Part shown: positions 997 to 61,638 of the stretch, piece by piece | Layout: every line of letters begins with the position of its first letter | How positions within the stretch are numbered: position 1 is the first letter of the stretch | Origin: Ornithinimicrobium cerasi | GTDB taxonomy: Bacteria; Actinomycetota; Actinomycetes; Actinomycetales; Dermatophilaceae | Assembly (NCBI RefSeq): GCF_003702705.1 | Contig: NZ_QZMN01000009.1 | Coordinates: 62,001-126,000, forward strand | Length of the DNA stretch: 64,000 bases | Reading direction: 5' to 3' | The notes under the pieces: model-generated | What the model saw: only the letters and a program-made list of their open reading frames with translations | The model's database searches: none | Told to the model about the DNA's origin: nothing | Position numbers and translations under genes: made by a program

Positions 997-1090
997 GCGC
1001 GTCATCCTAGGGGTGGGGTCGGGGGCCGGACGGGGTATGCCGTGGGACCGGCGACGCAGTCCCATCGTGGTGGCTATTCATGCAGGGTCG

Positions 1091-1120
1091 AGTATACCTA
1101 TGCACGGCTGGGTGGGTCAC
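1091..1120 (-). promoter_or_regulatory. Candidate sigma-A-type promoter of rocD
   Basis: On the minus strand a TATACT hexamer (1096-1091) stands 18 bp from GTGACC (1120-1115), which matches TTGACA in four of six positions. Predicted start near 1083, leaving a leader of about 87 nt that includes an imperfect TGGGAC/GTCCCA hairpin at about 1043-1066. The -35 overlaps the stop codon of the upstream MFS gene. Assigned by eye only. Confidence 0.45.
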
Positions 1121-2472
1121 GTCGTGTCGAGGGCGTCCCCGGCCTGCTCGGGCAGGAGGATCCAGGCGGCGGCGGCCCCCAGCACGAAGCTCGCGCCGAA
1201 CACCGCGAAGAGCGCGGCGTTGCCCCAGGCCGCCAGGACGACGGGCACGAGGAGCGGCGCCGCGACGGAGGCGATCCGGCCGAAGCCGGCCGCGGCACCG
1301 GCCCCGGAGGCCCGCACGGTCGTGGGGTAGATCTCCGGGGTGATCGCGTACAGGGCCCCCCAGGCGCCCAGGTTGAAGAACGACAGGGCGCACCCCGCGG
1401 CCAGGATCTGCCACACCTCCCCCGCCATCCCGAAGAACACCGCGGAGACGCCGGAGCCGACGAGGAAGGTCGCCAGGGTGGCGCGCCTCCCCCAGACCTC
1501 GACGAGCACGGCAGCCACGGCATACCCGGGCAGCTGCGCGAGGGTGATGACGAGCGTGTAGCCGAAGGAACGGACGAGGTCGAAGCCCTGTGCGTACAGG
1601 AGGGTCGGCAGCCAGATGAAGGCACCGTAGTAGGAGAAGTTGACGCAGAACCACACCAGCCAGATGCCCAGGGTGCGCCGGCGGTAGACCGCGCCCCACA
1701 GCGCCCCCGGGGTGCGGGGTGGCGCGGGCGGCAGCGGGCGGCTCTCCTGGGGGGGCAGGCCGGCCGAGGCCTCGAAGCGGCGTACCACCTCCTCGGCCTC
1801 CTCGACCCGACCGCGGCGCTCGAGGAACAGCGGCGACTCCGGCAGGCCTCTGCGCACCACGACGGCGTAGAGGGCGGGCACCACGCCCAGCGCGAAGGCC
1901 CACCGCCAGCCCTCCTCGGAGGTGGGGACGACGAAGAAGCCGATCAGTGCCGCCAGGATCCAGCCGACCGCCCAGAAGGACTCCAGGGCGACCACCATCC
2001 GGCCGCGGATGCGCGCCGGGGAAAGCTCGCTGACCAGGGTGGAGGCGACGGGCAGCTCGGCCCCGAGGCCGATCCCCACGACGAAGCGCAGCACGAGCAG
2101 CATCGCCAGGCCGGTCGCCAGGGCCGAGGCCCCGGTCGCCAGGCCGTAGACCAGGAGGGTGAGGGCGAAGACGGTGCGGCGGCCGTAGCGGTCGGCGAGC
2201 ATCCCGCCGACCGTCGCACCGAGCGCCATCCCGACGAAGCCGATGGACAGCAGCCACGACTGCTCGGTGCGGGTCAGGTCCCAGGACGTCGCCACCGCGA
2301 GACCGACGAAGGAGATGAGCCCGACGTCCATCGCGTCGAGGGCCCAGCCGGTGCCCGAACCGAGCAGGACACGGGTGTGCTGCCGGGTGTAGGGCAGGCG
2401 TCCCATACGCTCCGGACGGGTGGGCAGCTGCTCACGTGCGGTCGCGCCCACCGCGGGCGTCGTCGTCGGCAT
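1117..2472 (-). CDS. MFS transporter, NiaP/sugar-porter-like
   Basis: A 451-residue, twelve-helix secondary transporter of the inner membrane. The first helix reads GWALDAMDVGLISFVG, the acidic pattern of NiaP/AAHS-type carriers. The loop after helix 2 is DRYGRR, the classical MFS signature, and an RRGLPESPLFL stretch follows helix 6, as in metabolite:H+ symporters. The charged loop between the two six-helix halves (about residues 200-245) is rich in Glu/Arg/Pro. Niacin, aromatic acids or sugars are all possible substrates, and the sequence does not decide. The ATG at 2472 follows TACGAT by 8 nt, so the mRNA may be leaderless. The stop is about 120 bp from rocD on the same strand. Confidence 0.85.
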   Translation of the reverse strand: MPTTTPAVGATAREQLPTRPERMGRLPYTRQHTRVLLGSGTGWALDAMDVGLISFVGLAVATSWDLTRTEQSWLLSIGFVGMALGATVGGMLADRYGRRTVFALTLLVYGLATGASALATGLAMLLVLRFVVGIGLGAELPVASTLVSELSPARIRGRMVVALESFWAVGWILAALIGFFVVPTSEEGWRWAFALGVVPALYAVVVRRGLPESPLFLERRGRVEEAEEVVRRFEASAGLPPQESRPLPPAPPRTPGALWGAVYRRRTLGIWLVWFCVNFSYYGAFIWLPTLLYAQGFDLVRSFGYTLVITLAQLPGYAVAAVLVEVWGRRATLATFLVGSGVSAVFFGMAGEVWQILAAGCALSFFNLGAWGALYAITPEIYPTTVRASGAGAAAGFGRIASVAAPLLVPVVLAAWGNAALFAVFGASFVLGAAAAWILLPEQAGDALDTT

Positions 2473-2509
2473 GGCTACCGATCGTAGGCCAGCACGCCGG
2501 CCCCGACGG

Positions 2510-3007
2510 TCAGCGGTAGTTGGTGTACTGCAGGGCCACGTCGAGGTCCTTGGACTTCAGCAGCCGCTGGATCTCCTGCAGGTCGTCGCGGGACTTGGAG
2601 GTCACGCGCAGCTCGTCACCCTGGATGAGCGGCTTGACCCCCTTGGGTCCCTCCTCACGGATGATCTTGGAGATCTTCTTCGCGTTCTCGCTGGAGATGC
2701 CCGAGGTCAGCGCGGCCTCGAGGCGGTACTCCTTGTCGGAGAGCCGGGGCTCGCCGTCGGAGGAGTAGTCGAGGTGCTTGAGCGAGACGCCGCGCTTGAC
2801 CAGCTTGGTCTGCAGGACGTCCAGCACCGCCCGGCAGCGCTCCTCGCTGTTCGCGGACATCTTGATCGTCTCGCCGACGAGCTCGACGGAGGCACCGACG
2901 TTCTTGAAGTCGTAGCGCTGGCTGATCTCCTTGGCGGCCTGGTTGACGGCGTTCGCCACCTCCTGGTGGTCGACCTTGCTGACGATGTCGAAGGACGAGT
3001 CGGCCAT
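2510..3007 (-). CDS. yajQ: YajQ/UPF0234 family nucleotide-binding protein
   Basis: A 165-residue soluble protein matching YajQ over its full length: N-terminal MADSSFDIVSKVDHQEV, RYDFKN and the C-terminal half with RVTSKSRDDLQEIQRLL. Family members have two ferredoxin-like folds. Some bind cyclic di-GMP and act with transcription factors, and others bind tRNA or nucleotides, so the role here is open. The ATG at 3007 is preceded by AGGAGG with an 8-base spacer. That spacer is built from one copy of the GGTATGCCG motif, which overlaps the ribosome site itself. It is divergent from tRNA-Tyr. Confidence 0.93.
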   Translation of the reverse strand: MADSSFDIVSKVDHQEVANAVNQAAKEISQRYDFKNVGASVELVGETIKMSANSEERCRAVLDVLQTKLVKRGVSLKHLDYSSDGEPRLSDKEYRLEAALTSGISSENAKKISKIIREEGPKGVKPLIQGDELRVTSKSRDDLQEIQRLLKSKDLDVALQYTNYR

Positions 3008-3053
3008 GCGGCATACCTCCTGTGCTCGGTTCGGACCTGCGACGGGTGACTGT

Positions 3054-3059: not shown

Positions 3060-3092
3060 TTCATCCGCGCTCGACGTCGTGCGGCGCGCACT

Positions 3093-5369: not shown

Positions 5370-6317
5370 ATGAGGACCCCCGCACCGCCGCCGGACCCGA
5401 CACCGCCGACCCTGCCCCGCACACCTCCCCTGGTGCTGCGGGGCAGGGTCTTCGACGCCTCCCGGCCTGCGGTGATGGCCATCCTCAACCGCACGTCCGA
5501 CTCCTTCTGGGCGGGCAACCGGCACGCCGCCCTGGAGGACGCCCTCGACGCGCTGCACACCGCGGTCGCCGACGGCGCCGACATCGTGGACGTCGGCGGG
5601 GTGCGCGCCGGCCAGGAGGGGGAGTGGGTGGACGCCCGGGAGGAGATCTCCCGGGTGCTGCCCCTCCTGGAGGCGGCGCGCGCGGCATACCCCGCGCTCG
5701 TGCTGTCCCTGGACACCTGGAGGGGCGAGGTGGCGCTGGCCGCCGAGGGGGTCGTCGACCTCGTCAACGACACGTGGGCGGGCCACGACCCCGAGCTGGT
5801 GCACGTGGCCGCACGCGTCGGGGCGGGGGTGGTCTGCTCGCACACCGGCGGCCTGCCCCCGCGGACCGACCCGGTGGGGATGCGGTACGCCGACGAGCAG
5901 GGCGACGACGAGCTCGCCGTGGTGCGGGACGTCCTGCGCGTGCTGGCGCGGGGGGCGCTGGTGGCGGAGGCGGCCGGCGTGCCGCCCGAGCGCATCCTCG
6001 TCGACCCGACCCTCGACTTCGGCAAGACCACCCGGCACTCGCTCGTCACCCTGCGCCACACCGCCGACGTCGCGGGGCTGGGCTACCCGGTGCTGCAGGC
6101 GATATCCCGCAAGGACTTCGTCGGCGAGACGCTCGACCTCGAGGCCGACGACCGGCTGGAGGGGACGCTGGCCGCGACGGCGGTCGCGGCGTGGCTGGGC
6201 ACGACCGTCTTCCGGGCCCACGACGTGCGGGCGACCCGACGGGCGGTCGACATGGTGGCCTCGCTCCGGGGCGACCGGCCGCCGGTGCTCAGCGTCCGCG
6301 GCGAGCCGGGCACCTGA
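5370..6317 (+). CDS. Dihydropteroate synthase family protein, FolP2-like
   Basis: A 315-residue TIM-barrel protein of the DHPS/pterin-binding family. The family opening MAILNRTSDSF replaces the usual N-V-T-P-D-S-F with N-R-T-S, as in mycobacterial FolP2, which lacks normal DHPS activity. Other marks are ADIVDVGGVRAG, LSLDTWRGEVA, NDTWAGHDPEL, HTGGLPPR, DPTLDFGKTTRHS, AISRKDFVGETL and a closing FRAHDVRATR. Since the pterin loop is altered, folate synthesis is not proven, and a second folP elsewhere would be expected. The ATG at 5370 starts 15 bp after the preceding stop, so it is probably co-transcribed with the membrane protein. It is convergent with htpX. Confidence 0.82.
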   Translation: MRTPAPPPDPTPPTLPRTPPLVLRGRVFDASRPAVMAILNRTSDSFWAGNRHAALEDALDALHTAVADGADIVDVGGVRAGQEGEWVDAREEISRVLPLLEAARAAYPALVLSLDTWRGEVALAAEGVVDLVNDTWAGHDPELVHVAARVGAGVVCSHTGGLPPRTDPVGMRYADEQGDDELAVVRDVLRVLARGALVAEAAGVPPERILVDPTLDFGKTTRHSLVTLRHTADVAGLGYPVLQAISRKDFVGETLDLEADDRLEGTLAATAVAAWLGTTVFRAHDVRATRRAVDMVASLRGDRPPVLSVRGEPGT

Positions 6318-7316: not shown

Positions 7317-8828
7317 TCAGATGATCCCGACGGGTGCCACGCTGCCCAGCACCAGCAGGGTGGTCAGCGCAGCCACCAGGACCCACCAGGCCACGGGGGT
7401 ATGCCGTGCCTCCTCACCTGCGCGCGCCTCCCCCGCCGCGTCGGTCCCGCCGGGCCCCGTCGTGGACGGTGCGCTGAGCAGGGTCGCGAACCACCGCAGG
7501 TAGACGGCGATCCCGATCGCCACGTTGACGGCCGCGACCACGGCGAGCCACCAGGTGCCGTCGCCCACCACGGGTCGCAGCGCCACGACCTTGGCCACGA
7601 GGCCGGCTACGGCCGGTGGGAGCCCGGCGAGGGTGAGCAGGGCCAGACCGAGCGGCAGGGCCAGGAGCGGCCGGGCCCGGAGCATCCCGCGCTGCCCCTC
7701 GAGGGAGGTGCCGGCCCCGCCCTGCGCGACGACGAGGACGACGACGAAGGCCAGGAGCGTGGCGACCACGTAGACGAGGAGGTAGGAGCCGGCCGCGGAG
7801 GCGGCCCGGGAGGACAACGAGGCCAGCGGCAGCAGCACCCATCCGGCCTGGGCCACGGTGGACCACGCCAGCAGCCGGACCGTGTCGGTCTGGACGAGGG
7901 CGACGAGGTTGCCCACCGTCATCGAGAGGGCCGCGAGCAGGGCGACGGCGAGCAGCGTGGTGTCGTCCACGGACCCCAGTGCCCGCACCAGGACGACGAG
8001 GGCGCCGAGCGCCGCGACCTTGGACACCGTCGCCAGGTACGCGGTGACCGGCAGCGGAGCGGTGGTGTAGGTGATGGGGGTCCAGGCGTGGAACGGCACC
8101 GCCGAGATCTTGAAGGCCAGGCCGGCGAGCACGAACACCGAGGCCAGGAGCAGCAGGACCGGCTCCCGCGCCGTCGGCGCGCCGAGCAGCGCCGTGCCGG
8201 TGGCCGCCACCCACAGGGCGGCCCCCATGGCGAGCAGGCCGAAGGAGACGAGGGAGGTGGCCAGCAGCGCGACCGCGCCCTCGACCGACCGGGCGCGGCG
8301 CTCCGCGGCCCAGCGCGGGTGGGTCAGCGCGACGAGGGCCACCGTGGGGAGGGTGGCGAGCTCGAGCGAGACGAGGAGGGTCCCGAGGTCACCGGCAGCC
8401 GGGACCGCCGCGACACCACCGGTCGCGCCGAGCAGGAGCGAGACGACGACCGGGGCACGTCCCCCGTCGCCACCGGCACCGCCGCCGCTGACACCGCCAC
8501 CACCGTCACCGCCGGCCCACTCGCGCCACGCCAGGACGAGGACCACGAGCGCCCCGAGGAGGGCGGTCACCTGCAGGGCCGAGACCAGCCGGTCGGCGGT
8601 GTGGAGACATTCGCCGGTGGGCAGGCAGAAAGCTGTCCGGGCGTCCCCCGCGACCAGACGGAGGCCGGGCAGCGCCGCGAGGGCACCGCCGGCCAGTCCC
8701 ACCGCCGCGACCCCCAGGTGGAGGACCCGGCGCCCAGGCAGCGCGGCGTCCAGCACGAGCACGAGGACGGCGGCGACCAGCGGCGCCAGCACGGGCAGCG
8801 TGGACGCGAGCTGCACCTCCACCCTCAT
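7317..8828 (-). CDS. nuoN: NADH-quinone oxidoreductase subunit N, partial cluster
   Basis: A 503-residue antiporter-like proton-channel subunit of the membrane arm. The proton-pathway block FKISAVPFHAWTPITYTTAPLPVTAYLATVS (given here in parts: FKISAVPFHAWTP, then VTAYLATVSKVAA) is the NuoN signature with its conserved Lys and His. LLAWSTVAQAGWVLLPLA marks the later channel half. A Gly/Ala-rich loop near residues 90-120 is longer than in the 512-residue paralogue at 38768. The start ATG 8828 overlaps the nuoM stop by four bases (ATGA). It is the last gene of the set, with no terminator visible before htpX. Confidence 0.92.
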   Translation of the reverse strand: MRVEVQLASTLPVLAPLVAAVLVLVLDAALPGRRVLHLGVAAVGLAGGALAALPGLRLVAGDARTAFCLPTGECLHTADRLVSALQVTALLGALVVLVLAWREWAGGDGGGGVSGGGAGGDGGRAPVVVSLLLGATGGVAAVPAAGDLGTLLVSLELATLPTVALVALTHPRWAAERRARSVEGAVALLATSLVSFGLLAMGAALWVAATGTALLGAPTAREPVLLLLASVFVLAGLAFKISAVPFHAWTPITYTTAPLPVTAYLATVSKVAALGALVVLVRALGSVDDTTLLAVALLAALSMTVGNLVALVQTDTVRLLAWSTVAQAGWVLLPLASLSSRAASAAGSYLLVYVVATLLAFVVVLVVAQGGAGTSLEGQRGMLRARPLLALPLGLALLTLAGLPPAVAGLVAKVVALRPVVGDGTWWLAVVAAVNVAIGIAVYLRWFATLLSAPSTTGPGGTDAAGEARAGEEARHTPVAWWVLVAALTTLLVLGSVAPVGII

Positions 8829-10432: not shown

Positions 10433-12483
10433 CGTGTCACCACCCCGACGCCGGCGAGCACCAGCACGGCCCCCAGGACGAGCGCCAGCGCAGGGGTCGC
10501 GCGGCGCGGCGTGAGCCAGTCACCGGCCCGGCCGAGCAGGTGGGCGCCGGCGCCGCCGCCGCGCACCCAGGCGTCCAGCACCTCGGCGTCGAACCAGGCG
10601 ACGGCCCGCGCGAGCGCCAGCACGGGCGTCGCGACGAGGAGCCGGTAGGCGTAGTCGGCACCGAGCCCGCGCTCGGCCGCGATGCTGACGTTGGCGGGGA
10701 CCCTGGCCCCGGCGTCCCGGGTGCGCACGCCGCGCGCGGCGAGCGCGACGGCCACCGCCGCGACGAGCATGAGGAGGAGGGTGACGAGCAGCAGCTGGAG
10801 GTTGAGGTGGACGTCGCTGCGCCAGACGGGCAGCAGGGCCACGGCGGCGCCGAGGAGCGTCATGAGCATCAGCACCGTGGTGCCCAGCCGGGCGGAGGAG
10901 CTGATCGCGGCCTCCGCGCGCTCGAGCCCCTCGGCCTCGTGCAGCACCACCGGCTCGTCGAAGAAGTCGTCGATCCGCTCCACGCCGCCCTGGTGGTAGG
11001 TCGCTGCCAGCTGCTCGGCGTCGGTGCGTCGGTCGAGCACGAGCCAGGCGCGCATGCAGTAGGCGGCGGTGAGCGGGGCCGCCGCGCCGACCGAGGACAG
11101 CACGATCACCGACGCGACACCGCCGGTCGTGAGCGCACCGACCTCCGCCGCACCCAGGATCAGCTCCTTGGAGAAGAACCCGACGAAGGGCGGCACTCCC
11201 GCCAGGCCGAGCAGTCCCCAGGCGAGCCGGCGGCGCAGCACCCGGTAGCGGCGGGCGCCGGAGGCGACGAGCGCCATGGCGGTGCCGCCCACCAGCACGC
11301 CGAGCCAGCCCACGGACAGGAAGAGCAGCGCCTTGAACCACGCGTGGGCGACGAGGTGCTGCGCCGCCGCGTCCGGTCCGGTCGCCGGCGTCGCGGCGGC
11401 CAGCGCGGCGAGCATCAGGGCCACCTGGCTGACGGTGGACCAGGCCAGCAGCCGCTTGAGGTCGCCCTGCGCGAAGGCCAGCAGCGCGGCCCCCAGGACC
11501 GTCACCGACGCGAGCACGGCCAGCAGCAGCCGGGCCGGGTCGGTGACGGCGAGCAGCTCGAAGAGGTGGGTGAGCACGACCGTGCCCGCGGCGACCATCG
11601 TCGCGGCGTGGATCAGCGCGGAGGCGGGCGTGGGGCCCTCCATCGCGTCCGGGAGCCAGTCCTGGAACGGGAAGAGCGCCGACTTGCCCGCCACCCCCAC
11701 GACCACGAGGAGCATGGCCACGACGAGGCCCGTCGAGGGCCCGGGCACCGTGGCGCTGCTGCTCCAGTGCTCGACGATGCGGGTGATCGACGTCGTGCCG
11801 GCGCCGCCCGCGAGGATCACGAGCCCGAGGACGAAGCCGATGTCGGCGGTGCGGGTCACGAGCAGCGCCTTGCTGGCTGCCCGGCGGGCGGCGTTCTTGG
11901 TCGAGTGGTGGCCGATGAGCAGGAAGGAGCACCACCCCATGACCTCCCAGCCGACGATGAGCAGCAGGACGTCGTCGGCGTGCACGGTGAGCAGCATGGC
12001 CGCGGTGAACAGCGAGACCGTCGCCGCGAAGGTCCGGTAGCGGGGGTCGTACCAGAGGTACCAGCGGGCGTAGACCTGCACGACCAGCGCGACCGTGGCG
12101 ACGGTGACGGCGATGAGCGCCAGCGGCCAGGTGACGACGAGGCCGAGGGGGGCGTCGAGCTCCCCGAGGGGCAGCGCCCCGAGGGTGCCCGAGGTGCGGC
12201 GCGCCCCGGGGGTGAGGGCCAGGGCATACAGCTGCCAGACGGTGGCCGCCAGCGTGCCGAGCCCGCCCGCGACACCGATCCACGCGGCGAGGCGGTTCGA
12301 GCGGCCCGACAGCGTGACCCCGGCGAGCGCGGCGAGGAGCGGCACGAGCACCGCCCACTGGGCGGGGGTCCCCCACAGGTCGGGCACGGGCAGGGCCGGT
12401 ATGCCGAGGCTCGGCAGCTGCAGGTCCGCCCAGGACAGCTCGCTCGGGTCGGGCAGCGAGATGCCCGGCAGGGTCCGGCTCAC
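10429..12483 (-). CDS. nuoL: NADH-quinone oxidoreductase subunit L, partial cluster
   Basis: A 684-residue distal proton-pump subunit. Marks are YLWYDPRYRTFAATVSLF, LLIVGWEVMGWCSFLLIGHH, GKSALFPFQDWLPDAMEGPT with the channel Lys, ALIHAATMVAAGTVVL and LKRLLAWSTVSQVALMLAAL. The C-terminal part holds the long lateral helix region. The N-terminus is extended by about 30 polar residues (LPGISLPDPSELSWADLQLP) compared with the other nuoL. The GTG start at 12483 overlaps the nuoK stop. The copy of GGTATGCCG at 12398 lies inside this extension and forces an ATA codon. Confidence 0.93.
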   Translation of the reverse strand: MSRTLPGISLPDPSELSWADLQLPSLGIPALPVPDLWGTPAQWAVLVPLLAALAGVTLSGRSNRLAAWIGVAGGLGTLAATVWQLYALALTPGARRTSGTLGALPLGELDAPLGLVVTWPLALIAVTVATVALVVQVYARWYLWYDPRYRTFAATVSLFTAAMLLTVHADDVLLLIVGWEVMGWCSFLLIGHHSTKNAARRAASKALLVTRTADIGFVLGLVILAGGAGTTSITRIVEHWSSSATVPGPSTGLVVAMLLVVVGVAGKSALFPFQDWLPDAMEGPTPASALIHAATMVAAGTVVLTHLFELLAVTDPARLLLAVLASVTVLGAALLAFAQGDLKRLLAWSTVSQVALMLAALAAATPATGPDAAAQHLVAHAWFKALLFLSVGWLGVLVGGTAMALVASGARRYRVLRRRLAWGLLGLAGVPPFVGFFSKELILGAAEVGALTTGGVASVIVLSSVGAAAPLTAAYCMRAWLVLDRRTDAEQLAATYHQGGVERIDDFFDEPVVLHEAEGLERAEAAISSSARLGTTVLMLMTLLGAAVALLPVWRSDVHLNLQLLLVTLLLMLVAAVAVALAARGVRTRDAGARVPANVSIAAERGLGADYAYRLLVATPVLALARAVAWFDAEVLDAWVRGGGAGAHLLGRAGDWLTPRRATPALALVLGAVLVLAGVGVVTR

Positions 12484-15116: not shown

Positions 15117-15604
15117 TGGATCTCACACCCTACCTCGACGGGATCGCCGCGGACCTCGACCGGGCCACCGCCCTCGCCGACGACCGCACCCGCGACGTCG
15201 CCCACCGCCTCGTCTCCGCGCTCGAGCCGGGACTGCGGCTCGCGCTCGTCCGGGCCGTCTCGGACACCGCGGCCGCCGTGGCCAGGGAGCTCGACGAGGC
15301 CGTCGTCACGGTGACCATGGCCGGCACCGAGCCGGTCGTCACGGTCACCCGCACCCCGCCGCCGACCTCCCACGAGCCCGACCGGCCCGCCCTCCCCGCG
15401 GACGACGACGGGGACGGCGGCGCGGCCCGGATCACGCTCCGGCTGCCGGACCAGCTCAAGACCCGGGCCGAGGAGCTCGCCGCCTCCTCGGGGCAGTCGT
15501 TGAACACCTGGCTCGTCCACACCGTCCGCCGCGCGACCGCGCAGGGGCGCGACGGCATACCCCCCACCACCCCCGGCTCCCGTCGCGTCAGCGGCTGGGC
15601 CTGA
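15116..15604 (+). CDS. Ribbon-helix-helix (HicB/Arc-like) regulator with N-terminal domain
   Basis: 162 residues in two parts. Residues 1-85 form a predicted helical domain (MDLTPYLDGIAADLDRATAL) of unknown role, then a Pro/Asp-rich linker. Residues 105-145 (ARITLRLPDQLKTRAEELAA, then SLNTWLVHTVRRAT) are a ribbon-helix-helix DNA-binding fold like HicB antitoxins. No HicA-type toxin is next to it, so a regulator is more likely than a toxin-antitoxin pair. The following DUF4097 gene starts 19 bp downstream and is probably co-transcribed. The start codon is fused to a palindromic operator candidate. Confidence 0.75.
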   Translation: MDLTPYLDGIAADLDRATALADDRTRDVAHRLVSALEPGLRLALVRAVSDTAAAVARELDEAVVTVTMAGTEPVVTVTRTPPPTSHEPDRPALPADDDGDGGAARITLRLPDQLKTRAEELAASSGQSLNTWLVHTVRRATAQGRDGIPPTTPGSRRVSGWA

Positions 15605-16883: not shown

Positions 16884-16933
16884 GACCCGACGGTATGCCG
16901 CAGGACGCCCCGCGCGCCTGCCCCGGGGAGGGG

Positions 16934-17611: not shown

Positions 17612-18229
17612 TCAGGCGGAGGGCGGCCGGACCAGGTCGCGGGTGACCTCGCCCGCGGAGACCGGCCGATCGGCATACCTCGAGCCGGACCGCGCCCGCG
17701 CCCGCCCCGGCACCTCGGCGGCGATCTGCTGCTGCAGCTGCACGATGCCGGCGAGCAGCGCCTCGGGTCGCGGGGGGCAGCCGGGGACGTAGACGTCCAC
17801 CGGGATGAGCTGGTCGACGCCCTTGGTGACCGAGTAGGAGTCCCAGTAGGGCCCCCCGGAGTTGGAGCAGGCGCCGAAGGAGATGACGTACTTCGGCTCG
17901 GGCATCTGGTCGTAGAGCCGACGGATGGCCGGCGCCATCTTGTCGGTCACCGTGCCGGAGACGACCATGAGGTCGGCCTGCCGGGGGCCGGGGGCGAACG
18001 GGATGACGCCGAGACGGATGAAGTCGTGGCGGGCCGTCGAGGCGCTGATGAACTCGATCGCGCAGCAGGCCAGCCCGAAGTTGAAGACCCACAACGAGTA
18101 CTTGCGACCCCAGTTGAGGACGACCTGGATCGCGCGGGGCGCCCGCTCCACCGGCGCACCGACCCGCGGGGTCGGCAGGGCCGTCGCGGTATGCCGCGTC
18201 ACCTCACCGTCGCCGGTGCTCACCCTCAC
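17612..18229 (-). CDS. nuoB: NADH-quinone oxidoreductase subunit B, partial cluster
   Basis: A 205-residue subunit holding the terminal N2 4Fe-4S cluster. All four ligands are present: C55/C56 ([10 protein letters not shown]), C121 ([11 protein letters not shown]) and C151 (VPGCPPRPE). [20 protein letters not shown] and the [10 protein letters not shown] block are standard. An N-terminal extension of about 30 residues and a basic C-terminal tail differ from the copy at 54104. GTG 18229 is chosen because it forms the GTGA overlap with nuoA seen throughout the set. A second GTG at 18223 is possible. Confidence 0.92.
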
Positions 18230-18651: not shown

Positions 18652-19869
18652 ATGAGCCGGTTCCTCGACCTCGCCGACCCGAGCTTCGACGTCACGGGCG
18701 AGGAGGTCCTGGCCGCCCGCGCCGAGTCGTCCTGGGCGCGCACGAGCTACGGGTATGCCGTGCTGCGGCACGCCGAGGTCACCGCGCTGCTCAAGGACCG
18801 CCGCTTCCGGCAGGGCAACGCCCGCTGGCCCGCGCAGAACGGCATCTCCTCCGGCCTGTTCAGCGACTGGTGGCACACGGTGCTCCTCTCCCTCGAGGGT
18901 GAGGACCATCTGCGGCTGCGTCGGCTGCTCAACCCGGCGTTCAAGCAGGGCGCGGTCACGCCGATGGTCCCCGGCTTCACCGAGCTCGCGCACGAGCTGG
19001 TCGACGGCTTCAGCGAGCGCGGGTCGGTCGAGCTCATCAGCGAGTTCGCCGAGCCCTACGCCTCGCGCATCCTCTGCCGGCTCATCGGGCTGCCGGAGGG
19101 CGAGTGGGCCCAGGTCGCGCACTGGGCCGACGACCTGGGCAAGTGCTTCGGCGTGCGGATCCGCGAGGACCTGCCCCGCATCGAGGCCGCGCTGGAGGGT
19201 CTCTACGGCTACTGCGACGCGGTCGTGCGCGACCGCACCGACGCCCCGCGGGACGACCTCGTCTCCGAGCTGGTCGCGCACCAGCGGGAGGGACGGCTCT
19301 CCGCCGAGGAGCTGTCGGTCTCCCTGGTCTTCCTCGTCTTCGCCGGGATGGAGACGACCCGCAACCAGCTGGGCCTGGCCCTGCAGACGCTCCTGGCCCA
19401 CCCCGAGCAGTGGCGCCTCCTCGGGCAGCGCCCGGACCTGGGCCGCAACGCCGTCGAGGAGGTGATGCGGGTCAACCCCACCGTCACCTGGATCACCCGC
19501 GAGGCGCTGGAGGAGGTCGACCTGGGGAACGGTCTCGTGGTGCAGGAGGGGGACATCGTGCAGGTGCTCTCGCACAGTGCGGGGACCGACCCCCGCGCCC
19601 AGCCGGACGTGTCCTTCGACATCACCGTCGAGCACCCGATGCACATGGGCTTCGGCGGCGGCGTCCACCACTGCCTCGGGCACTGGGTCGCCCGGACGGA
19701 CATGGCGGTGGCGCTGCCGGTGCTCGCCGCCCGGATGCCCGACGCCCGCGCCGACGGTCCCGGCCAGTGGCTGCCGATGTCGGGCAACACCGGTGCGGTC
19801 CGCTACCCGATCGCCTTCGCGCCGACGCCGCGCCGGTCCGTCCGTCCCGACCCGCCGGTCGGGGGGTGA
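18652..19869 (+). CDS. Cytochrome P450
   Basis: A 405-residue soluble bacterial P450 monooxygenase. The heme ligand is Cys341 in FGGGVHHCLGHWVAR. The oxygen-activating helix I reads VFAGMETTRNQ (residues 229-239), the ExxR motif is EEVMR, and the C-helix is EGEDHLRLRRLLNPAFK. Glu replaces the usual acid Asp of helix I, which is common in actinobacterial P450s. The substrate is unknown. No ferredoxin gene is next to it. ATG 18652 lies six bases after TAGCAT, so the mRNA is probably leaderless. The final residues RSVRPDPPVGG come from a tandem-duplicated hairpin segment. Confidence 0.94.
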   Translation: MSRFLDLADPSFDVTGEEVLAARAESSWARTSYGYAVLRHAEVTALLKDRRFRQGNARWPAQNGISSGLFSDWWHTVLLSLEGEDHLRLRRLLNPAFKQGAVTPMVPGFTELAHELVDGFSERGSVELISEFAEPYASRILCRLIGLPEGEWAQVAHWADDLGKCFGVRIREDLPRIEAALEGLYGYCDAVVRDRTDAPRDDLVSELVAHQREGRLSAEELSVSLVFLVFAGMETTRNQLGLALQTLLAHPEQWRLLGQRPDLGRNAVEEVMRVNPTVTWITREALEEVDLGNGLVVQEGDIVQVLSHSAGTDPRAQPDVSFDITVEHPMHMGFGGGVHHCLGHWVARTDMAVALPVLAARMPDARADGPGQWLPMSGNTGAVRYPIAFAPTPRRSVRPDPPVGG

Positions 19870-31969: not shown

Positions 31970-32050
31970 GCGTCCCCTTGGGGTGGAGGTGGAGACCCCA
32001 GGGTATGCCGCGGCTCCCGCACCCCGATCGTCACCGTCGCGGCGCCCGGC

Positions 32051-45690: not shown

Positions 45691-47104
45691 GGCGCTCCTC
45701 CGGGTCGGGGGTGGTGGTGGAACTGCTCACGGTCACCGGCTGCGCGGCCTCGACGGCGGTCCGCGGCTCGACAACCTTCTGGCCGGGCAGGGGCGGGACG
45801 GGGTAGCCGCCGGCGAGCGGGTCGACCTCGGCGGGCACGGCCAGCCGCTCGTCCCTCTCGGTGGCGCGGCGCTGGGCGTAGCGGTCCCACAGGAAGATGC
45901 CGCCCACGACGAACACCCCGATGACCGCGAGCGTGGCCACCGTGACGAACCGGCCCTCGCCGAAGAAGCCCTCCTGGGCGGCACGGATGAGCATCACGGC
46001 GATCACCCACACCAGCGAGAGCGGGATGAGCACCTTCCACCCCAGCTTCATGAACTGGTCGTAGCGCACGCGCGGCAGCGAGCCGCGCAGCCACACGTAG
46101 AAGAAGATGAACATCCACATCTTCAGCGTGAACCACAGCAGACCCCACCAGCCCGAGCTCAGCATGTTGTCGTTGATGAGCGTCAGCGGCCAGGGCGCGT
46201 GGAAGCCCCCGAGGAAGAGGGTCGTGGCGAGGGCCGAGACGGTGAACATGTTGATGTACTCGCCGAGGAAGAACATCCCGAACTTCATCGAGGAGTACTC
46301 GGTGTGGAACCCGCCGCCGAGCTCGCCCTCGCCCTCGGCCAGGTCGAACGGCAGCCGGTTGGTCTCCCCCACCATCGTGATGAGGTAGACGACGAAGCTG
46401 AAGAACAGCGGCACGACGTACCACATCGGGATCTCGAAGAGCCCGAAGACCGAGACCGGCTCGGCCTGGCGCGCGACGATCTGGCTGGTGGACATCGACC
46501 CGGCGTAGAGGAACACGGCGACCAGGGAGAGCCCCATGGCGATCTCGTAGGAGATGACCTGGGCCGTCGAGCGGAGCCCGCCGAGCAGGGGGTAGGTGGA
46601 CCCGGACGACCAGCCGGCGAGGACGAAGCCGTAGGCACCGACGCCGGCGACGGCAAGCACGAGGAGCACCGCGACCGGGGTGTCGGTCAGCTGCAGCGGG
46701 GTGGTGTGACCGAACATCCGGACGTCACCGCCGAGCGGGATGATCGCGAAGGAGACGAACGCCAGCGACGCCACGAGGAGCGGCGCCGCGTAGAACATCA
46801 GCTTGTCCGCGTTCTTGGGCGTCACGTCCTCCTTGAGGAAGAGCTTGATGCCGTCGGCGAGGGTCTGCAGGATCCCCAGGGGGCCGAACCGGTTGGGCCC
46901 CGGGCGCTGCTGCATCCGGCCGATGACGCGTCGCTCGAACCAGATGACCACGACGACGGACAGCATGACGTAGACGAAGAGCAGCAGCGCCTTGACCAGC
47001 GACAACCACCACGGGGTGTCGCTGAAGTCGGCCGCCGGCCGGTCGACGGCCGGCAGGGCCAGACCCGCGGCGAGCAGGTCGGGGTATGCCGTGAGCAGGC
47101 TCAT
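45683..47104 (-). CDS. nuoH: NADH-quinone oxidoreductase subunit H
   Basis: 473 residues. Quinone-site loops are [60 protein letters not shown] and [17 protein letters not shown] soluble C-terminal extension of about 60 residues ([20 protein letters not shown] on) distinguishes it from the 324-residue partial-cluster copy. ATG 47104 overlaps the nuoG stop (ATGA). Confidence 0.97.
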
Positions 47105-56645: not shown

Positions 56646-57338
56646 TCACGCCAGGCCACGCTCGGCGACGTCGTCGAGGACCAGCGGCCTCCCCCGGCGG
56701 GACTCCAGCTCGGCGCACTGCGCGAGGAAGAGCTCGGCGCACGCGACGGCGTCGGTGGTGGCGCGGTGCGCGGCATACCGGGGCAGCCCGTGGCGGCGCC
56801 GGCAGGCGTCGAGGCGCAGCGTCCCCTGCGGCAGCTCGTGGTGCTGCGCCCGCATCAGCCGACGCTCCAGCTCCAGGGTGTCCACCACCTGGAAGGGCAC
56901 GGACGCGCCGTAGACCTCCAGGCAGGAGGACGCGAGGAAGCTCGTCTCGACCTGGGCGAAGTGCGCGAGCAGCACCCGTCGGTAGCCGGGGCCGACGAAC
57001 GCCCGCAGCACCTCGGGGAGCACCTGCGCCAGCGGCGGGGCGTCGGTGAGGACGTCGTCGGTCAGCCCGTGGACGACGGCCGAGCCGCCGACGTCGCCGC
57101 GCGGCCGCACCGCCAGGTGGCGCGTCCCGCCGAGGAGCACCTCGCCCGCGAGCACGGGCACCAGGCCGAACGAGAGCAGCTCGTCGCGTCGCGGGCGCAG
57201 GCCGGTCGTCTCGACGTCGAGCGCGAGGATCTCGACCTCGGACAGGAGGGTCGAGCGGGACGGTGGCGGGACGTCGGCGAGCTCGGCGAGCGGCCCGGGC
57301 GGCGGCGTGGGGTCGCGGCGCCAGGGCAGGCGCGGCAT
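56646..57338 (-). CDS. DnaQ-like 3'-5' exonuclease (DEDDh fold)
   Basis: 230 residues. Catalytic motif I is EILALDVETTGLRPRRDELL, and motif III is AAHRATTDAVACAELF with the His and Asp. Motif II, normally H-N-x-x-F-D, reads LLAHFAQVETSFL, with Glu in place of Asp, so activity needs testing. A polymerase-proofreading or RNase-T role cannot be told apart. ATG 57338 shares its first base with the upstream stop (TGATG), so it is coupled to the cNMP/CBS protein. Confidence 0.82.
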   Translation of the reverse strand: MPRLPWRRDPTPPPGPLAELADVPPPSRSTLLSEVEILALDVETTGLRPRRDELLSFGLVPVLAGEVLLGGTRHLAVRPRGDVGGSAVVHGLTDDVLTDAPPLAQVLPEVLRAFVGPGYRRVLLAHFAQVETSFLASSCLEVYGASVPFQVVDTLELERRLMRAQHHELPQGTLRLDACRRRHGLPRYAAHRATTDAVACAELFLAQCAELESRRGRPLVLDDVAERGLA

Positions 57339-59200
57339 CAGCCCACCCGCGGGCCGCGCAGGAGCAGACCCTGCTGGGCAGCGCGCACGATCGCGAACGC
57401 GTCGCGCAGGTGGCGCCGCTCCAGGCCGCCGAGCCGCTCCGGCGCGAGGTGGTTGTCGGGGCGCTCGCCGCGGCGCAGCTGCTCCGCCTGGTGGTGCAGC
57501 CGCAGGTAGGACATCAGCTCGAGCGCGTCGGAGAGGTCGCGTGCGGTCTCTGCGGGGACCACCCCGGCGGCGCGGGCGGCGGCGAGCCGGGCGGTCGTCC
57601 CGAGCGCCGGTGAGCCCGCGCGGAGCGCGTGGACCCGCGCGACCTGCACGACCGCGGTGATCCCGCGCTTGACGTCGAGGGTGTCCCGGTGGGCCCCGGA
57701 GTCCTCGAGCACGAACCCGCGGAAGAACCCCAGCGGCGGGCGCATCCGGGCCGCCTGCGCGGCCAGGTAGGAGAGCAGGAGGTCCGAGCGGGCCGCCAGC
57801 GGGACGACGTCGGCACGCAGGTCCTCGACCAGCGAGGCGTCCCCGTAGAGGGCGCGCATGTCGTAGAAGATGGCGGCCCGGAGCACGGCGTCCGGCTCCG
57901 GCTCGTGCGACCAGCGGGCGAAGGTCGCGCGCCACCGGCCCACGGTCATCCGCCACCGCGGGTTGGTGGCCATCACCTCGCCCTCGCAGCGGGGCAGCCC
58001 GGCAGCCTCGAGCCCCTCGGTGACCCGGTCCGCGAGCCGCGCCCACCAGGGGTGCGCGGGGTCGGCCCCGTCGGCGAGGACCAGGGCGTGGTCCTGGTCG
58101 CCGCCCAGCCCCAGCTCCTCGCGGGCGGCCGAGCCCAGGACCACCCAGGCGAAGCCCCCCGGCGCCGGCCCGAGGTCCTGCTCCACCTCGGCCTGCGCCA
58201 GCTCGAGCAGCCGGGTGCCGACGGCGTCCAGGAGGGCGGTGGTCACCCGGCCGATGTCACCGGCGGTGGCGTCCTCGGCCACGAGCTGGGAGATCAGCGC
58301 CGGCACCTCGCGTGCGTGGCCGACGACCCCGGCGGCGTCGGGCTGGCGGGCCAGGTCGGCGACGAGGTAGACCGGGTTGGACCGCTCCAGACGGATGAGG
58401 TCGGTGGTGGTGACGAGGCCGAGGACCGAGCCGTCGACCTCGAGGACCGGCAGGTGGTGCAGGTTGCGCCCGGTCATCTCGAGCATCACCTCGAGCGCGA
58501 GCGCGTCCGCCCCCACGGTCACCGGCGCCGAGGTCATCACGTCGCGCACCGGCCGGGACGGGTCCGTCCCCGCGGCGAGCACGCGGCGCCGCAGGTCGCG
58601 GTCGGTCATGATGCCGGTGAGCCGCCCCTCCTCCATCACCAGCAGCGACGACACCCCGGCGTCGGTCATCACCTTCGCGGCGCTGCCGATGCTGACGTCG
58701 GGACCGACCGTCACCGGCGCCCGTCGGACGAGGTCGCGCACGGAGGTGCGCAGGACGGCCGACCCGCGCCGACCCTCGTGCAGCCGGGCGATCGCGGCCT
58801 TGATCCGCTCGTGGTGCGTCGCGGCGAAGTGGAGCGTCACCTCCGGGTGCGCCGCGCTCAGCTCGTCGAACGCCTCCTGCGGGAGGGTGATGAGGAGGGT
58901 GTCCTCCCGGGCGGTGACGGCATACCGGGTCGGGACGTGCTCGACGACCGCGGACATCCCGAAGCTGCCCCCCGCCCCGACCCGGTCGACGACCTGGCCC
59001 TCGTCGGTGATGTCGACCGCGCCCGACCGCACCACGAGGAGACGGTCGTTGCGCTCACCCGCGCGCAGGATCTCGGTCCCGCGGCGCGCGTAGCGCAGCG
59101 TGCACCGGCGGGGCAGGTCCTCCAGGACGGCGTCGGGCAGGACGTCGAAGGGCGCGTGCCCCGCGAGGAAGTCCCGCACCTCGGCGAGCTCGACGTCCAT
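57338..59200 (-). CDS. cNMP-binding/CBS/DUF294 nucleotidyltransferase-like signalling protein
   Basis: 620 residues: cyclic-nucleotide-binding domain (15-125), two CBS domains (about 150-275, VMTDAGVSSLLVMEEGRLTG and PVLEVDGSVLGLVTTTDLIR), a DUF294 nucleotidyltransferase-like domain with GSAAREELGLGGDQDHALVL, and a C-terminal substrate-binding DUF294_C helix bundle. The set is typical of bacterial proteins sensing cAMP and adenylates. The catalytic G-S...D-x-D motif looks complete. ATG 59200 has GGGGAGG upstream. It is co-transcribed with the exonuclease. Confidence 0.88.
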   Translation of the reverse strand: MDVELAEVRDFLAGHAPFDVLPDAVLEDLPRRCTLRYARRGTEILRAGERNDRLLVVRSGAVDITDEGQVVDRVGAGGSFGMSAVVEHVPTRYAVTAREDTLLITLPQEAFDELSAAHPEVTLHFAATHHERIKAAIARLHEGRRGSAVLRTSVRDLVRRAPVTVGPDVSIGSAAKVMTDAGVSSLLVMEEGRLTGIMTDRDLRRRVLAAGTDPSRPVRDVMTSAPVTVGADALALEVMLEMTGRNLHHLPVLEVDGSVLGLVTTTDLIRLERSNPVYLVADLARQPDAAGVVGHAREVPALISQLVAEDATAGDIGRVTTALLDAVGTRLLELAQAEVEQDLGPAPGGFAWVVLGSAAREELGLGGDQDHALVLADGADPAHPWWARLADRVTEGLEAAGLPRCEGEVMATNPRWRMTVGRWRATFARWSHEPEPDAVLRAAIFYDMRALYGDASLVEDLRADVVPLAARSDLLLSYLAAQAARMRPPLGFFRGFVLEDSGAHRDTLDVKRGITAVVQVARVHALRAGSPALGTTARLAAARAAGVVPAETARDLSDALELMSYLRLHHQAEQLRRGERPDNHLAPERLGGLERRHLRDAFAIVRAAQQGLLLRGPRVG

Positions 59201-59217: not shown

Positions 59218-59919
59218 CTAGTGGGCCTTGACGGCGTGGTGGATCGCCGCGATGCCACCGGTGAGGTTGCGCCAGCGGACCTGCGTCCAGCCCGCCGCGC
59301 GGACCGAGCGGCCGAGCTCCTCCTGCGCCGGCCACGCCTCGATCGACTCCGACAGGTAGACGTAGGCGTCCGGGTTGGAGCTGGTCCGGCGGGCGACCGC
59401 GGGCAGGACCTTGAGCACCCCCTTGCCGTAGACCTCCCGCAGACCCGGGACCACGGGCGTGGAGAACTCGCACACGACGAGGCGCCCCCCCGGGCGGGTC
59501 ACCCGGAGGAACTCGCGCAGCGCCGCGTCGACGTCCTCGACGTTGCGCAGCCCGAAGCTCATGGTGACCACGTCGAAGGAGTCGTCGGCGAACGGCAGCC
59601 GCGTCGCGTCGGCCGCCGTGAAGGGCAGGTCGGGCCGACGCCGGTAGCCCTCGCGGAGCATCCCGATCGAGAAGTCGGCGGGGACGACCTCGACCCCGGC
59701 GTCGGCGTAGGGCTCGCTGGACGTGCCGGTGCCGGCCGCGATGTCGAGCACCCGCTCCCCCGGTGCTGCGCCGACGGCCTTCGTCACCGCGCGACGCCAC
59801 AGGTGGTCGATGCCACCGGTCAGGACCGCGTTGGTGAGGTCGTAGCGCCGGGCGACGTCGTCGAACATCGCGGCGACCTCGCGCGGCTTCTTCTGCAGGC
59901 TGGCACGGGACGGGCTCAT
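59218..59919 (-). CDS. menG: Demethylmenaquinone methyltransferase
   Basis: 233 residues, SAM-dependent methyltransferase catalysing the last ring methylation of menaquinone. SAM motif I is [20 protein letters not shown], with [12 protein letters not shown] and [20 protein letters not shown] as UbiE/MenG signatures and [20 protein letters not shown] near the end. ATG 59919 divides the 37-bp gap with isochorismate synthase, which is divergent. Short gap to the DUF294 gene, same strand. Confidence 0.94.
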
Positions 59920-59956
59920 GCCGTCATCCTCGCACCACGACCTAGAGTGGGCGGCT

Positions 59957-61264
59957 ATGTCCCCCGCCCCCCGGCTGCGCGTGCGCAGCGTCGCCGTGGA
60001 CGTCACCGGCGACCTCCTCACCCGGATCCCCGACGAGGTGGACCCCCGCGAGGTGGTGACCTGGCTGCGCGAGGGTGACGGGCTGGTCGGGTGGGGCACG
60101 GTCGCGTCCGTGTCCACCAGCGGCGTCGACCGCTTCGAGGACGCCGAGCGCTGGTGGGAGGCCCTGCGCGACGCCGCCGCCGTCGAGGACGAGGTGCGTC
60201 TGCCGGGCAGCGGCCTGGTGGCCTTCGGGTCCTTCGCCTTCGCGGCCGGGTCCACCGACCCCAGCGTCCTGACCGTCCCCCGCGTGCTCATGGGGCGCCG
60301 CGACGGGCTGGCCTGGGTGACCCAGGTGGTCACCGAGGGCGAGCCGTGGCCGCCCGACCACCCGGCCGAGCTGCTGGGGCGCAGCAACCCGATGCTGGGC
60401 ACCCTCGACCCCCTCGTCGAGACCGAGGGCTCGGTCCCGGCTGCCGCGTGGCCGGGTGTCATCTCCCGCGCCGTGGAGCGGATCGACGCCGGGGAGGTCG
60501 AGAAGGTGGTCCTGGCCCGCGACGTCGTCGTGCGCCACCGGGAGGGCCGGGTCGTGCGGCTCGCACCCGTCCTCGAGCGGCTCGAGAAGCGGTATGCCGC
60601 GACGTGGACGTTCGCCGTCGCCGGCCTCGTCGGCGCCACCCCCGAGATGCTGGTGCGGCTCCAGGCCGGTCGCGCCCGGTCCCGCGTGCTCGCCGGCACG
60701 ATCCGGCGCAGCAACGGCATACCCCTGCCTCCCGAGCCCGCCCAGGGTCCCAACGACCCCCGGCTGCACCTGGTCACCAGCACCAAGGACCTCGACGAGC
60801 ACGCCTTCGCCGTGCGCTCGGTCAGCGCGGCGCTGGCCCCCCACTGCAGCGAGCTGCACGTGCCTGAGGCGCCCTACGTGCTCGAGCTGCCGGACGTCTA
60901 CCACCTGGCCAGCGACCTCACCGGCACGATGGCGAGCGGGGCGACCTCGCTGCGGCTCGCGGCCGCCCTGCACCCCACCGCCGCGGTGTGCGGCACACCG
61001 ACGGAGGCCGCGGCTCGCGTCATCGGCGAGCTGGAGGGCATGGACCGCGGCCGCTACGCCGGGCCCGTCGGGTGGATGGACGGCTCCGGCGACGGCGACT
61101 GGGGCATCGCGCTGCGCTGCGGCGAGCTGTCGGCCGACCGGCGCAGCGTGCGGCTGTTCGCCGGTGGCGGCATCGTCGCCGCCAGCGACCCGGAGGCCGA
61201 GCTGGCCGAGACCGAGATGAAGCTCACCGCGATGCGGCACGCGCTGGGGCTCCTGGCTCCGTGA
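59957..61264 (+). CDS. menF: Isochorismate synthase
   Basis: 435 residues of the chorismate-using family; isochorismate synthase converts chorismate to isochorismate, the first step of menaquinone synthesis. Marks are [74 protein letters not shown] and the closing [23 protein letters not shown] 59957 is eight bases after TAGAGT, so it may be leaderless. Entry to a salicylate or siderophore pathway is an alternative, but menD and menG alongside favour menaquinone. Confidence 0.92.
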
Positions 61265-61279
61265 CCCTCCACCGGCGAG

Positions 61280-61638
61280 GTGGACCTGCCACCGGGGAGG
61301 GTGCGCGCCGACTTCCTGCTCGCCGAGGTGGACGGGGAGGTCGTGGGGAGGGTGTCGGTGTGTCATCAGCTCACCGCGTTCCTCGCCGACGTGGGTGGGC
61401 ACGACGGGGGTATGCCGTGGGACCGCGGTTCCGCCGGCGCGGCTACGCGACGGAGATGCTCCGTCAGTCGGTGGCCCGTCTGTCGGAGCTGGGCGTGCGC
61501 CGGGTGCTGGTCACCTGCGATGACGACAACCCGGCATCGGCGGCCGTCATCGAACGCTGCGGCGGGGTCCTCGAGGACGTGCGGCGCCGTCCCGGTCAGG
61601 CGCCGAAGCGGCGTTACTGGATCACCGAAAACGGGTAG
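61280..61638 (+). pseudogene. GNAT acetyltransferase, N-truncated and frameshifted
   Basis: A relic of a COG3981-type acetyltransferase. The first frame gives DLPPGRVRADFLLAEVDGEV, VGRVSVCHQL and VGGHDG. The acetyl-CoA loop continues in another frame as GPRFRRRGYATEMLRQSVAR and ends DNPASAAVIERCGGVLEDVR. Restoring one G in the run just before 61411 rejoins the frames as G-Y-A-V. The first 50-60 residues of the family are also missing. It starts 16 bp after menF, so it has no independent promoter region. Confidence 0.8.

What the first reader, a model, noticed from the sequence alone, without database searches (positions are those of the whole stretch)
1034..61417. Over-represented 9-mer GGTATGCCG in both strands and all codon registers
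I count 24 copies of GGTATGCC, and every one continues with G. A rough independent-base estimate at about 72-73% GC gives near two copies of the 8-mer and under one of the 9-mer in 64 kb. The copies force TAT-GCC, GCA-TAC, ATA-CC and CAT-ACC codons in different genes and occur between genes (for example over the yajQ ribosome site), so selection is on DNA, not protein. Both orientations argue against a strictly polar FtsK-type guide. A DNA-uptake, recombination, methylation or nucleoid-protein site is possible. Copies are scarce inside the complete nuo operon (one in about 16.6 kb between 40188 and 56771). Near-matches also carry TATG.
Basis: seen in the sequence. Interest (0 to 1): 0.82.

Follow-up and report, generated by a model that had tools for sequence, protein, structure and literature searches.

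The report
Genome-wide self-DNA tag in Actinobacteria
A nine-letter DNA word is scattered about a thousand times through this bacterium's genome, and some relatives carry a different word in its place, much like the 'take up my own kind's DNA' tags described so far in two unrelated bacterial families.

Summary
GGTATGCCG occurs 24 times in the window (0.3 expected) and 1077 times in the genome (556+521, against 7 for the reversed word), probably an Ornithinimicrobium. It is not polar and no repeat family. It is abundant in 31 of 32 genus members and about 106 of 187 family genomes, near chance in many others. Some genomes poor in it carry another word: GCGAAGGGG in 19 of 187, GGTAGCGGC in Ornithinicoccus halotolerans, probably GTACGGCG in one. 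A 40-kb prophage in this genome's comEC has no copy. There is no replication-strand bias, while GGGGGAG in the related genome tested shows one. RecC does not track the word and E. coli Chi behaves differently. Best explanation: a DNA-uptake-sequence-like self tag with dialects, in a lineage with ComEA/ComEC and Tad-type genes but, in the genus, no type IVa pilins found. Uptake is untested, the reader protein unknown, and the machinery genes do not predict the word. Unexplained: in two genomes same-strand copies closer than 500 bp are almost absent.

The parts
1034..1042 (+). copy of GGTATGCCG
1518..1526 (-). copy of GGTATGCCG
3009..3017 (-). copy of GGTATGCCG, 2-10 bases upstream of the yajQ (DUF520) start, over its ribosome site
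5683..5691 (-). copy of GGTATGCCG
7398..7406 (+). copy of GGTATGCCG
12398..12406 (+). copy of GGTATGCCG
15553..15561 (-). copy of GGTATGCCG
16892..16900 (+). copy of GGTATGCCG
17671..17679 (-). copy of GGTATGCCG
18188..18196 (+). copy of GGTATGCCG
18752..18760 (+). copy of GGTATGCCG
21273..21281 (+). copy of GGTATGCCG
29526..29534 (+). copy of GGTATGCCG
32002..32010 (+). copy of GGTATGCCG
34003..34011 (-). copy of GGTATGCCG
35675..35683 (+). copy of GGTATGCCG
38162..38170 (+). copy of GGTATGCCG
40180..40188 (-). copy of GGTATGCCG, inside a Proton_antipo_M (Nuo-type) gene
47083..47091 (+). only copy inside the nuo stretch, near the start of the NADHdh (nuoH-type) gene
56771..56779 (-). copy of GGTATGCCG
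58918..58926 (-). copy of GGTATGCCG
60591..60599 (+). copy of GGTATGCCG
60715..60723 (-). copy of GGTATGCCG; convergent with the copy at 60591, 124 bases away
61409..61417 (+). copy of GGTATGCCG

Best explanation
GGTATGCCG (often followed by T) is a DNA-uptake-sequence-like self tag. A sequence-reading protein of the competence apparatus prefers DNA that carries the word. Homologous recombination of the imported DNA then spreads and restores the word, so it builds up on both strands (about one per 3.6 kb in G000 and 2.6 kb in G011) in vertically inherited DNA and is missing from fresh inserts. SHOWN: over-representation, strand balance, patchy and mutually exclusive words across the family, a tolerance profile with a GTATG core, absence from one prophage, ComEC and T2SSF proteins in nearly all family genomes, no prepilin-type (N_methyl) proteins found in the genus. 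INFERRED: that these species are competent, that the T2SSF proteins belong to Tad-type pili which with ComEA/ComEC bring the DNA in, and that uptake or recombination prefers the word. UNKNOWN: the reader protein, and why close copies avoid the same strand; directional pulling from the site is one guess.
For: Scale like that of known uptake words (1471 and 1965 in two genomes, passage of PMC1939737): 1077 copies against 7 for the control, up to 2198 in a relative. Strand balance: 123 leading: 148 lagging in the sample of complete genome G011, while GGGGGAG in the same DNA is 250:50 and flips at about 1.64-1.71 Mb. Dialects: GCGAAGGGG 478-1941 copies in 19 of 187 family genomes (16 of 16 g52, 3 of 3 g61), 15-124 in the other 168, and those 19 hold only 3-20 GGTATGCCG; GGTAGCGGC 625 in G023 against 22-125 in the other 58 genomes (the reversed-word control is common everywhere there and says nothing); GTACGGCGT 28 against 1.8 expected in a 100-kb sample of G141, in all 5 stretches. 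G023 nests in the Ornithinimicrobium clade of a LeuS tree (100/99; sister support 88/79). Old-word sites are not kept in G023 (0 of 8 aligned), nor new-word sites in G011/G000 (0 of 6). Prophage in comEC: 0 copies in 40.3 kb, about 11-13 expected from genome or sample density. Machinery: ComEC in 181 of 187, T2SSF in 184 of 187, ComEA (SLBB + HHH_3 in G023) in the com loci. Parallels in passages read: no orientation bias and 65% inside genes in H. influenzae (PMC1939737), dialects in Neisseriaceae (PMC3630211), need for tad genes and comEC in Micrococcus luteus (PMC4322843).
Against: No report of competence in this family was found. ComEC, ComEA and T2SSF are also present in genomes where no word was found (G032, G033), so the machinery does not predict the word; and the six genomes without a ComEC match all carry GGTATGCCG (127-504 copies), though all are drafts of 30-760 contigs at 58-95% completeness. 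In the window's own genome comEC is interrupted. No receptor candidate was found; the known receptor ComP and the USS candidate are type IV minor pilins (passages), a class not found in the genus. Published tests in H. influenzae found orientation irrelevant to uptake, so strand-dependent spacing is not predicted. The four words share little. Close inverted pairs under 100 bp are not enriched in G011 (6 against 4.6), though 3 convergent ones stand in G109 against 0.3. In some word-rich groups the reversed word is also raised (G067: 245 against 118). Site conservation between G011 and G000 is modest: 10 of 30 against 7 of 58 controls one way, 10 of 28 against 10 of 54 the other.
Confidence: 0.6

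Rival explanations
1. A Chi-like directional site that turns a helicase-nuclease (AdnAB or AddAB type, or RecBCD in part of the family) from degradation to recombination, and so marks self DNA.
For: Non-palindromic, genome-wide, absent from the prophage. A directional reader would make a second same-strand copy nearby redundant, as seen in G011 and G000. RecC is present in 31 of 32 genus genomes, 5 of 5 g39, 4 of 4 g65 and 15 of 16 g52.
Against: RecC is absent from word-rich groups (found in 0 of 9 g55, 1 of 9 g72, 1 of 11 g67) and present in genomes where no word was found (G059, G066, G095). E. coli Chi, same statistic on 550 kb of K-12: 98 leading: 35 lagging and no same-strand avoidance (10 against 10.0), the reverse of this word on both counts. 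Enrichment of 36- to 51-fold over Markov order 2 and a switch of word inside a genus would be unusual for a core repair enzyme (recalled). AdnAB and AddAB were not searched.
Confidence: 0.15
2. A site for a chromosome-organising, segregation or modification protein with fast-changing specificity (nucleoid protein, non-palindromic methylase or BREX-like system).
For: Strand-neutral spread; dialects could follow a changing DNA-binding protein.
Against: No polarity, and copies in 41 of 41 sampled stretches of G011; sites mostly inside genes (237 of 271 in G011, 108 of 133 in G000). Modification systems usually make words rare, not common (recalled). No methylation data available.
Confidence: 0.12
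3. A mutational or gene-conversion drive (biased short-patch repair) that creates the word without selection on function.
For: The near-miss GGCATGCCG is at 0.4-0.5 of expectation in G011 and G000, as if converted.
Against: Same-strand avoidance below 500 bp (3 against 21.4 in G011, P about 1e-6) and absence from a prophage of like G+C are not expected; the one-off profile looks like a binding profile.
Confidence: 0.07
4. A polar FtsK guide (KOPS/SRS-like).
For: Abundant non-palindromic word.
Against: 123:148 leading:lagging in G011, while GGGGGAG is 250:50 with a flip near the terminus. An apparent one-strand stretch in the first listing was a truncation of the list, disproved by the DNA itself.
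Confidence: 0.02

Closest known systems
DNA uptake sequences (DUS) of Neisseriaceae, with dialects
   Same: Short non-palindromic word, hundreds to thousands of copies, both strands; dialects by clade; under-represented in strain-specific insertions (passages of PMC3630211 and PMC2397512).
   Different: Actinobacterial host in whose genus no prepilin-type proteins were found; no ComP-type receptor known; the words share less than the DUS dialects do (these keep a CTG core); close inverted pairs not enriched in G011; same-strand avoidance below 500 bp in two genomes.
Uptake signal sequences (USS) of Pasteurellaceae (Hin and Apl types)
   Same: 9-mer core, two dialects, mostly inside genes in H. 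influenzae, no orientation bias round the chromosome (passages).
   Different: No AT-rich extended flank here beyond a T after the core and a weak preference just before it; different pilus class; different words.
Chi recombination hotspots
   Same: Short, non-palindromic, over-represented, marks self DNA.
   Different: E. coli Chi has leading-strand bias and no same-strand spacing rule; the word does not track RecC across the family.
HIP1 of cyanobacteria (recalled)
   Same: Highly iterated short word of unclear use.
   Different: HIP1 is palindromic (recalled); this word is not, and it has dialects.

Membership tests
DNA uptake sequence (DUS/USS) | Short word highly over-represented on both strands of the whole genome | tested here: met
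   556+521 against 2+5; 24 against 0.3 in the window
DNA uptake sequence (DUS/USS) | No bias of orientation with replication | tested here: met
   G011 sample 123:148; internal control GGGGGAG 250:50. One genome tested
DNA uptake sequence (DUS/USS) | Dialects that follow clades | tested here: met
   the word is also lost or replaced in single species
DNA uptake sequence (DUS/USS) | Depleted in recent insertions | tested here: met
   0 copies in the 40.3-kb comEC prophage of G000, about 11-13 expected; 1 in 21.1 kb and 2 in 20.4 kb in the parts held of two related inserts
DNA uptake sequence (DUS/USS) | Host has the conserved DNA-import gene comEC (with comEA) | tested here: met
   ComEC in 181 of 187 family genomes, but interrupted by a prophage in the window's own genome; ComEA in held com loci. 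Not discriminating
DNA uptake sequence (DUS/USS) | Type IV pilus with a minor-pilin receptor | tested here: not met
   N_methyl prepilins in 0 of 32 genus genomes; PilM only two weak partial matches there. T2SSF proteins, taken as TadB/C, in 32 of 32. Word-rich G036 of another genus does have N_methyl matches
DNA uptake sequence (DUS/USS) | Preferential binding, uptake and transformation by DNA with the word | not testable with these tools
   needs an uptake assay; the decisive feature, so membership is not claimed
DNA uptake sequence (DUS/USS) | Close inverted pairs as terminators (common in Neisseria, about 10% of sites in Haemophilus) | tested here: inconclusive
   G011: 6 pairs under 100 bp of 230 neighbour gaps, all inverted, 9.3 expected in all (4.6 inverted expected); G109: 3 convergent against 0.3
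Chi | Leading-strand bias and dependence on RecBCD | tested here: not met
   123:148 in G011; RecC missing from word-rich groups
KOPS/SRS | Polar from origin to terminus | tested here: not met

The most novel reading that the evidence does not exclude
A third, independent origin of DNA-uptake self tags, and the first in Gram-positive bacteria: a dialect system across a family of at least 53 genera, read by an unknown protein of a Tad-pilus/ComEA/ComEC machine that acts from the site in one direction, so that same-strand copies within about 500 bp are redundant. Dialect switches would then set barriers to gene exchange between genera.
Probability: 0.45. Interest if true: 0.93.

Novelty: new variant of a known kind. 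Interest (0 to 1): 0.83.

Why it matters
Strong sequence preference in DNA uptake is described in the paper passages seen as a property of two Gram-negative families (PMC7811141). A dialect system of this size in Actinobacteria would mean that self-tagging of DNA evolved again on a different pilus, would predict natural competence in dozens of genera, would give a cheap transformation handle for them (put the word on the DNA), and would make the question of how a Tad/ComEA machine chooses DNA directly testable. The natural contrasts inside genera (G023, G066 and G141 against their sisters) are ready-made for finding the reader protein.

Tried and rejected
Polar guide: the listing showed only + places from 154 to 404 kb of contig C1 and I first took this for polarity; fetched DNA showed both strands, so it was a cut-off of the list. 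RecBCD-Chi: argued against by RecC distribution and by the E. coli Chi control; but 31 of 32 genus genomes do have RecC, and the dialect-B genus g52 has it too, so the test rests on g55, g67, g72, g30 and on word-less genomes. Type IVa pilin receptor: genes not found in the genus. ComEC, ComEA or T2SSF as the predictor of the word: nearly universal, so no discrimination; the three genomes without T2SSF (G081, G126, G128) are word-poor, but so are many with it. G207's AGTAGGTGC looked like a dialect but lies in one of five stretches only, a local repeat. No word was found in 100-120-kb samples of G032, G033, G059, G066, G068, G095; a sparse word could be missed, and other word-poor genera were not sampled. 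G032's GGATGCCG (46 against 13) is too weak to call. Intergenic preference: none in G011 (34 of 271, 40.7 expected), present in G000 (25 of 133, 12.6 expected, P 9e-4), G148 (19 of 67, 10.2) and G109 (8 of 35, 3.5); coding was called by my own G+C-frame script, so this is rough. Same-strand avoidance is clear only for G011 and G000: G148 9 against 11.9, G109 0 against 1.7, G023 0 against 1.5, G141 2 against 1.8. In G000 the word ranks fifth lowest of 127 comparable words, and its 3 close same-strand pairs all lie in one 53-bp tandem array. '106 of 187' with 190 or more copies is a hand count from the table, done twice.
Full report
WHAT WAS CHECKED. All 24 copies are present and every GGTATGCC continues with G. 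Shuffles and low-order Markov models expect under one; order 4 expects 4.5; only the maximal-order model, built from the word's own sub-words, comes near 24. In the whole genome the word stands 556+521 times against 2+5 for the word read backwards. It is therefore a genome-wide feature and the window is only a sample.

WHOSE GENOME. A LeuS scan of named genomes puts the genus with Ornithinimicrobium (nearest named LeuS: Ornithinimicrobium sp. CNJ-824, 85%). G023 is Ornithinicoccus halotolerans EGI 80423: its contig C11 has the length of L118 (8504 bases) and comEA at the same place. The window's own record is not named by the tools. Other named loci fetched include Knoellia, Janibacter and Austwickia.

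SHAPE OF THE WORD. In G000 (131 contexts) and G011 (271) the core is followed by T in 0.52 and 0.46 of copies (background about 0.13-0.14). Single-mismatch forms are 3- to 29-fold enriched at position 1 and 6- to 17-fold at position 7, in G011 also at 8 and 9, but hardly at positions 2-6 (GTATG; a few small counts in G000 apart). That is a binding profile with a strict core. Sites lie mostly in genes and in all six registers. Inside the genus aligned sites are kept more often than nearby 9-mers, 27 of 56 against 13 of 108 summed over eight overlapping comparisons that are not independent; the reciprocal G000 to G011 comparison alone is 10 of 28 against 10 of 54.

NOT POLAR, NOT E. COLI-LIKE CHI. 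In complete genome G011 (41 stretches, 820 kb) the word is 143 forward and 128 reverse, 123 leading to 148 lagging. The same DNA holds GGGGGAG at 250:50, with the flip at 1.64-1.71 Mb, which shows that the test can see polarity. RecC occurs in 90 of 187 family genomes: in 31 of 32 of the genus, 5 of 5 g39 and 4 of 4 g65, but in only 0 of 9 g55, 1 of 9 g72 and 1 of 11 g67, which are all word-rich, and also in genomes where no word was found (G059, G066, G095). E. coli Chi in 550 kb of K-12 shows a 98:35 leading bias.

DISTRIBUTION AND DIALECTS. In the first 59 genomes (own included) the word is abundant in 31 of 32 of the genus and in 3 of 5 other family genera, and near chance in 22 genomes of other families, the highest being 25+24 in G046 against 5+7 for the control. 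In 187 family genomes (own included) 106 have at least 190 copies, some have about 50 to 171, and many are at chance, including single species inside word-rich genera (G023, G066, G141). In some word-rich genera (g30, g39, g65) the reversed word is also raised, most in G067 (245 against 118). Scans of DNA samples for other words found GGTAGCGGC in G023, confirmed genome-wide at 333+292 against 22-125 in 58 others, and GCGAAGGGG with its neighbour CGAAGGGGG in G148 and G109, confirmed at 478-1941 in 19 of 187 genomes and 15-124 in the rest. The 19 are exactly the 16 genomes of g52 and the 3 of g61, all at 3-20 copies of GGTATGCCG. A named Janibacter indicus locus carries 3+3 GCGAAGGGG and no GGTATGCCG in 16.7 kb, so g52 is probably Janibacter. 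G141 shows GTACGGCGT 28 against 1.8 in 100 kb, not checked genome-wide. A LeuS tree (27 of 31 loci tried gave a usable LeuS) places G023 inside the word-A Ornithinimicrobium clade (100/99), beside G015 and O. cavernae with moderate support 88/79, so a switch of word inside a word-A clade is likely.

MOBILE DNA. In G000, G002 and G018 comEC is split by an insert of about 40 kb at the same point. In G000 the insert carries a large serine integrase (PHROG 95; Resolvase and Recombinase domains) and a tape-measure protein, so it is a prophage; the other two inserts were not annotated. It has no copy of the word in 40.3 kb, where about 11-13 are expected, although its G+C is 0.72. The parts held of the other two inserts have 1 in 21.1 kb and 2 in 20.4 kb.

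MACHINERY. ComEC is found in 181 of 187 genomes; the six without it are word-bearing drafts. T2SSF proteins are in 184 of 187, often as neighbouring pairs about 1 kb apart, which I take as TadB/TadC. ComEA stands in the com loci of word-bearing and word-less genomes. Type IVa markers are missing from the genus: N_methyl in 0 of 32, PilM with two weak partial matches. In M. luteus, an actinobacterium, tad genes and comEC are needed for transformation (passages of PMC4322843). So the parts a Tad-type uptake system would need are there, but they do not predict the word, and no receptor was found.

THE ODD SPACING. Same-strand pairs under 500 bp are nearly absent: G011 has 3 against 21.4 expected (P about 1e-6), G000 3 against 11.3, all three from one 53-bp tandem array. 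Opposite-strand pairs are not depleted (34 against 23.6; 11 against 10.1). Among 122 words of similar count in G011 the word (ratio 0.14) and its one-base-shifted form (0.00) are the two lowest; the next is 0.44. E. coli Chi (10 against 10.0) and GGGGGAG in G011 (41 against 46.6) show no such avoidance. Samples of the other dialects are too small or show nothing. If an uptake machine starts at the word and pulls one way, a second same-strand word close by adds nothing; this is a guess. Passages read on H. influenzae found orientation irrelevant to uptake (PMC1939737), so this would be a difference.

VERDICT. The word works most like a DNA uptake sequence with dialects. Preferential uptake, the feature that defines the family, cannot be tested here, and the known type of receptor was not found, so it is not filed as a member. 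Searches of the held open-access library for Ornithinimicrobium with natural competence and Intrasporangiaceae with natural transformation returned no paper; broader searches, of which I saw only the 10 to 20 listed papers each, showed none on uptake words in Actinobacteria. A search for the bare word GGTATGCC gave 400 papers, of which the 20 listed were not, by title and abstract start, about such a word. Subscription journals and preprints are mostly not covered. Papers were seen only as search listings and passages (PMC12616744, PMC3630211, PMC4322843, PMC6370729, PMC7811141, PMC1939737, PMC2397512).

Noticed in passing
G000 contig C66, about 47820-88165 (L029-L031); also G002 C1 about 1161212-1201313 and G018 C46 about 68541-108976: An insert of about 40 kb splits comEC at the same point in three genus members; in G000 it is a prophage with a large serine integrase, reminiscent of the Listeria comK prophage (recalled). 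Import through ComEC would be off unless it excises.
   Followed up: partly
G011 contig C1 (41 sampled stretches): GGGGGAG is strongly leading-strand (250:50) and flips at 1.64-1.71 Mb: a candidate KOPS/SRS-type FtsK guide for this genus.
   Followed up: partly
L001:8888-9002 (G000 contig C1): A 53-bp tandem repeat carries three same-strand copies of the word, the only same-strand copies closer than 500 bp in the G000 sample.
   Followed up: partly
G207, one 20-kb stretch (among L207-L211): A local array of AGTAGGTGC (16 copies, both strands, one stretch of five) and enriched CGCTAACGC-type words whose place was not checked; nature unknown.
   Followed up: no
family-wide: RecC (RecBCD) is patchy, 90 of 187 genomes: general in the genus, g39, g65 and g52, but rare or absent in g55, g67, g72 and four of five g30.
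   Followed up: no
L124 (Austwickia sp., 11.8 kb): GTACGGCG occurs 2+3 times (0.9 expected by a second-order model); Austwickia may share the G141-type word.
   Followed up: partly
G000 contig C40 (L016, 11.9 kb, GC 0.683): Contig of lower G+C without a copy of the word; perhaps a plasmid or island.
   Followed up: no
family genomes with two or more partial ComEC matches (for example G119, G125, G151, G158, G171, G184): comEC may be split or broken in these too; not looked at.
   Followed up: no
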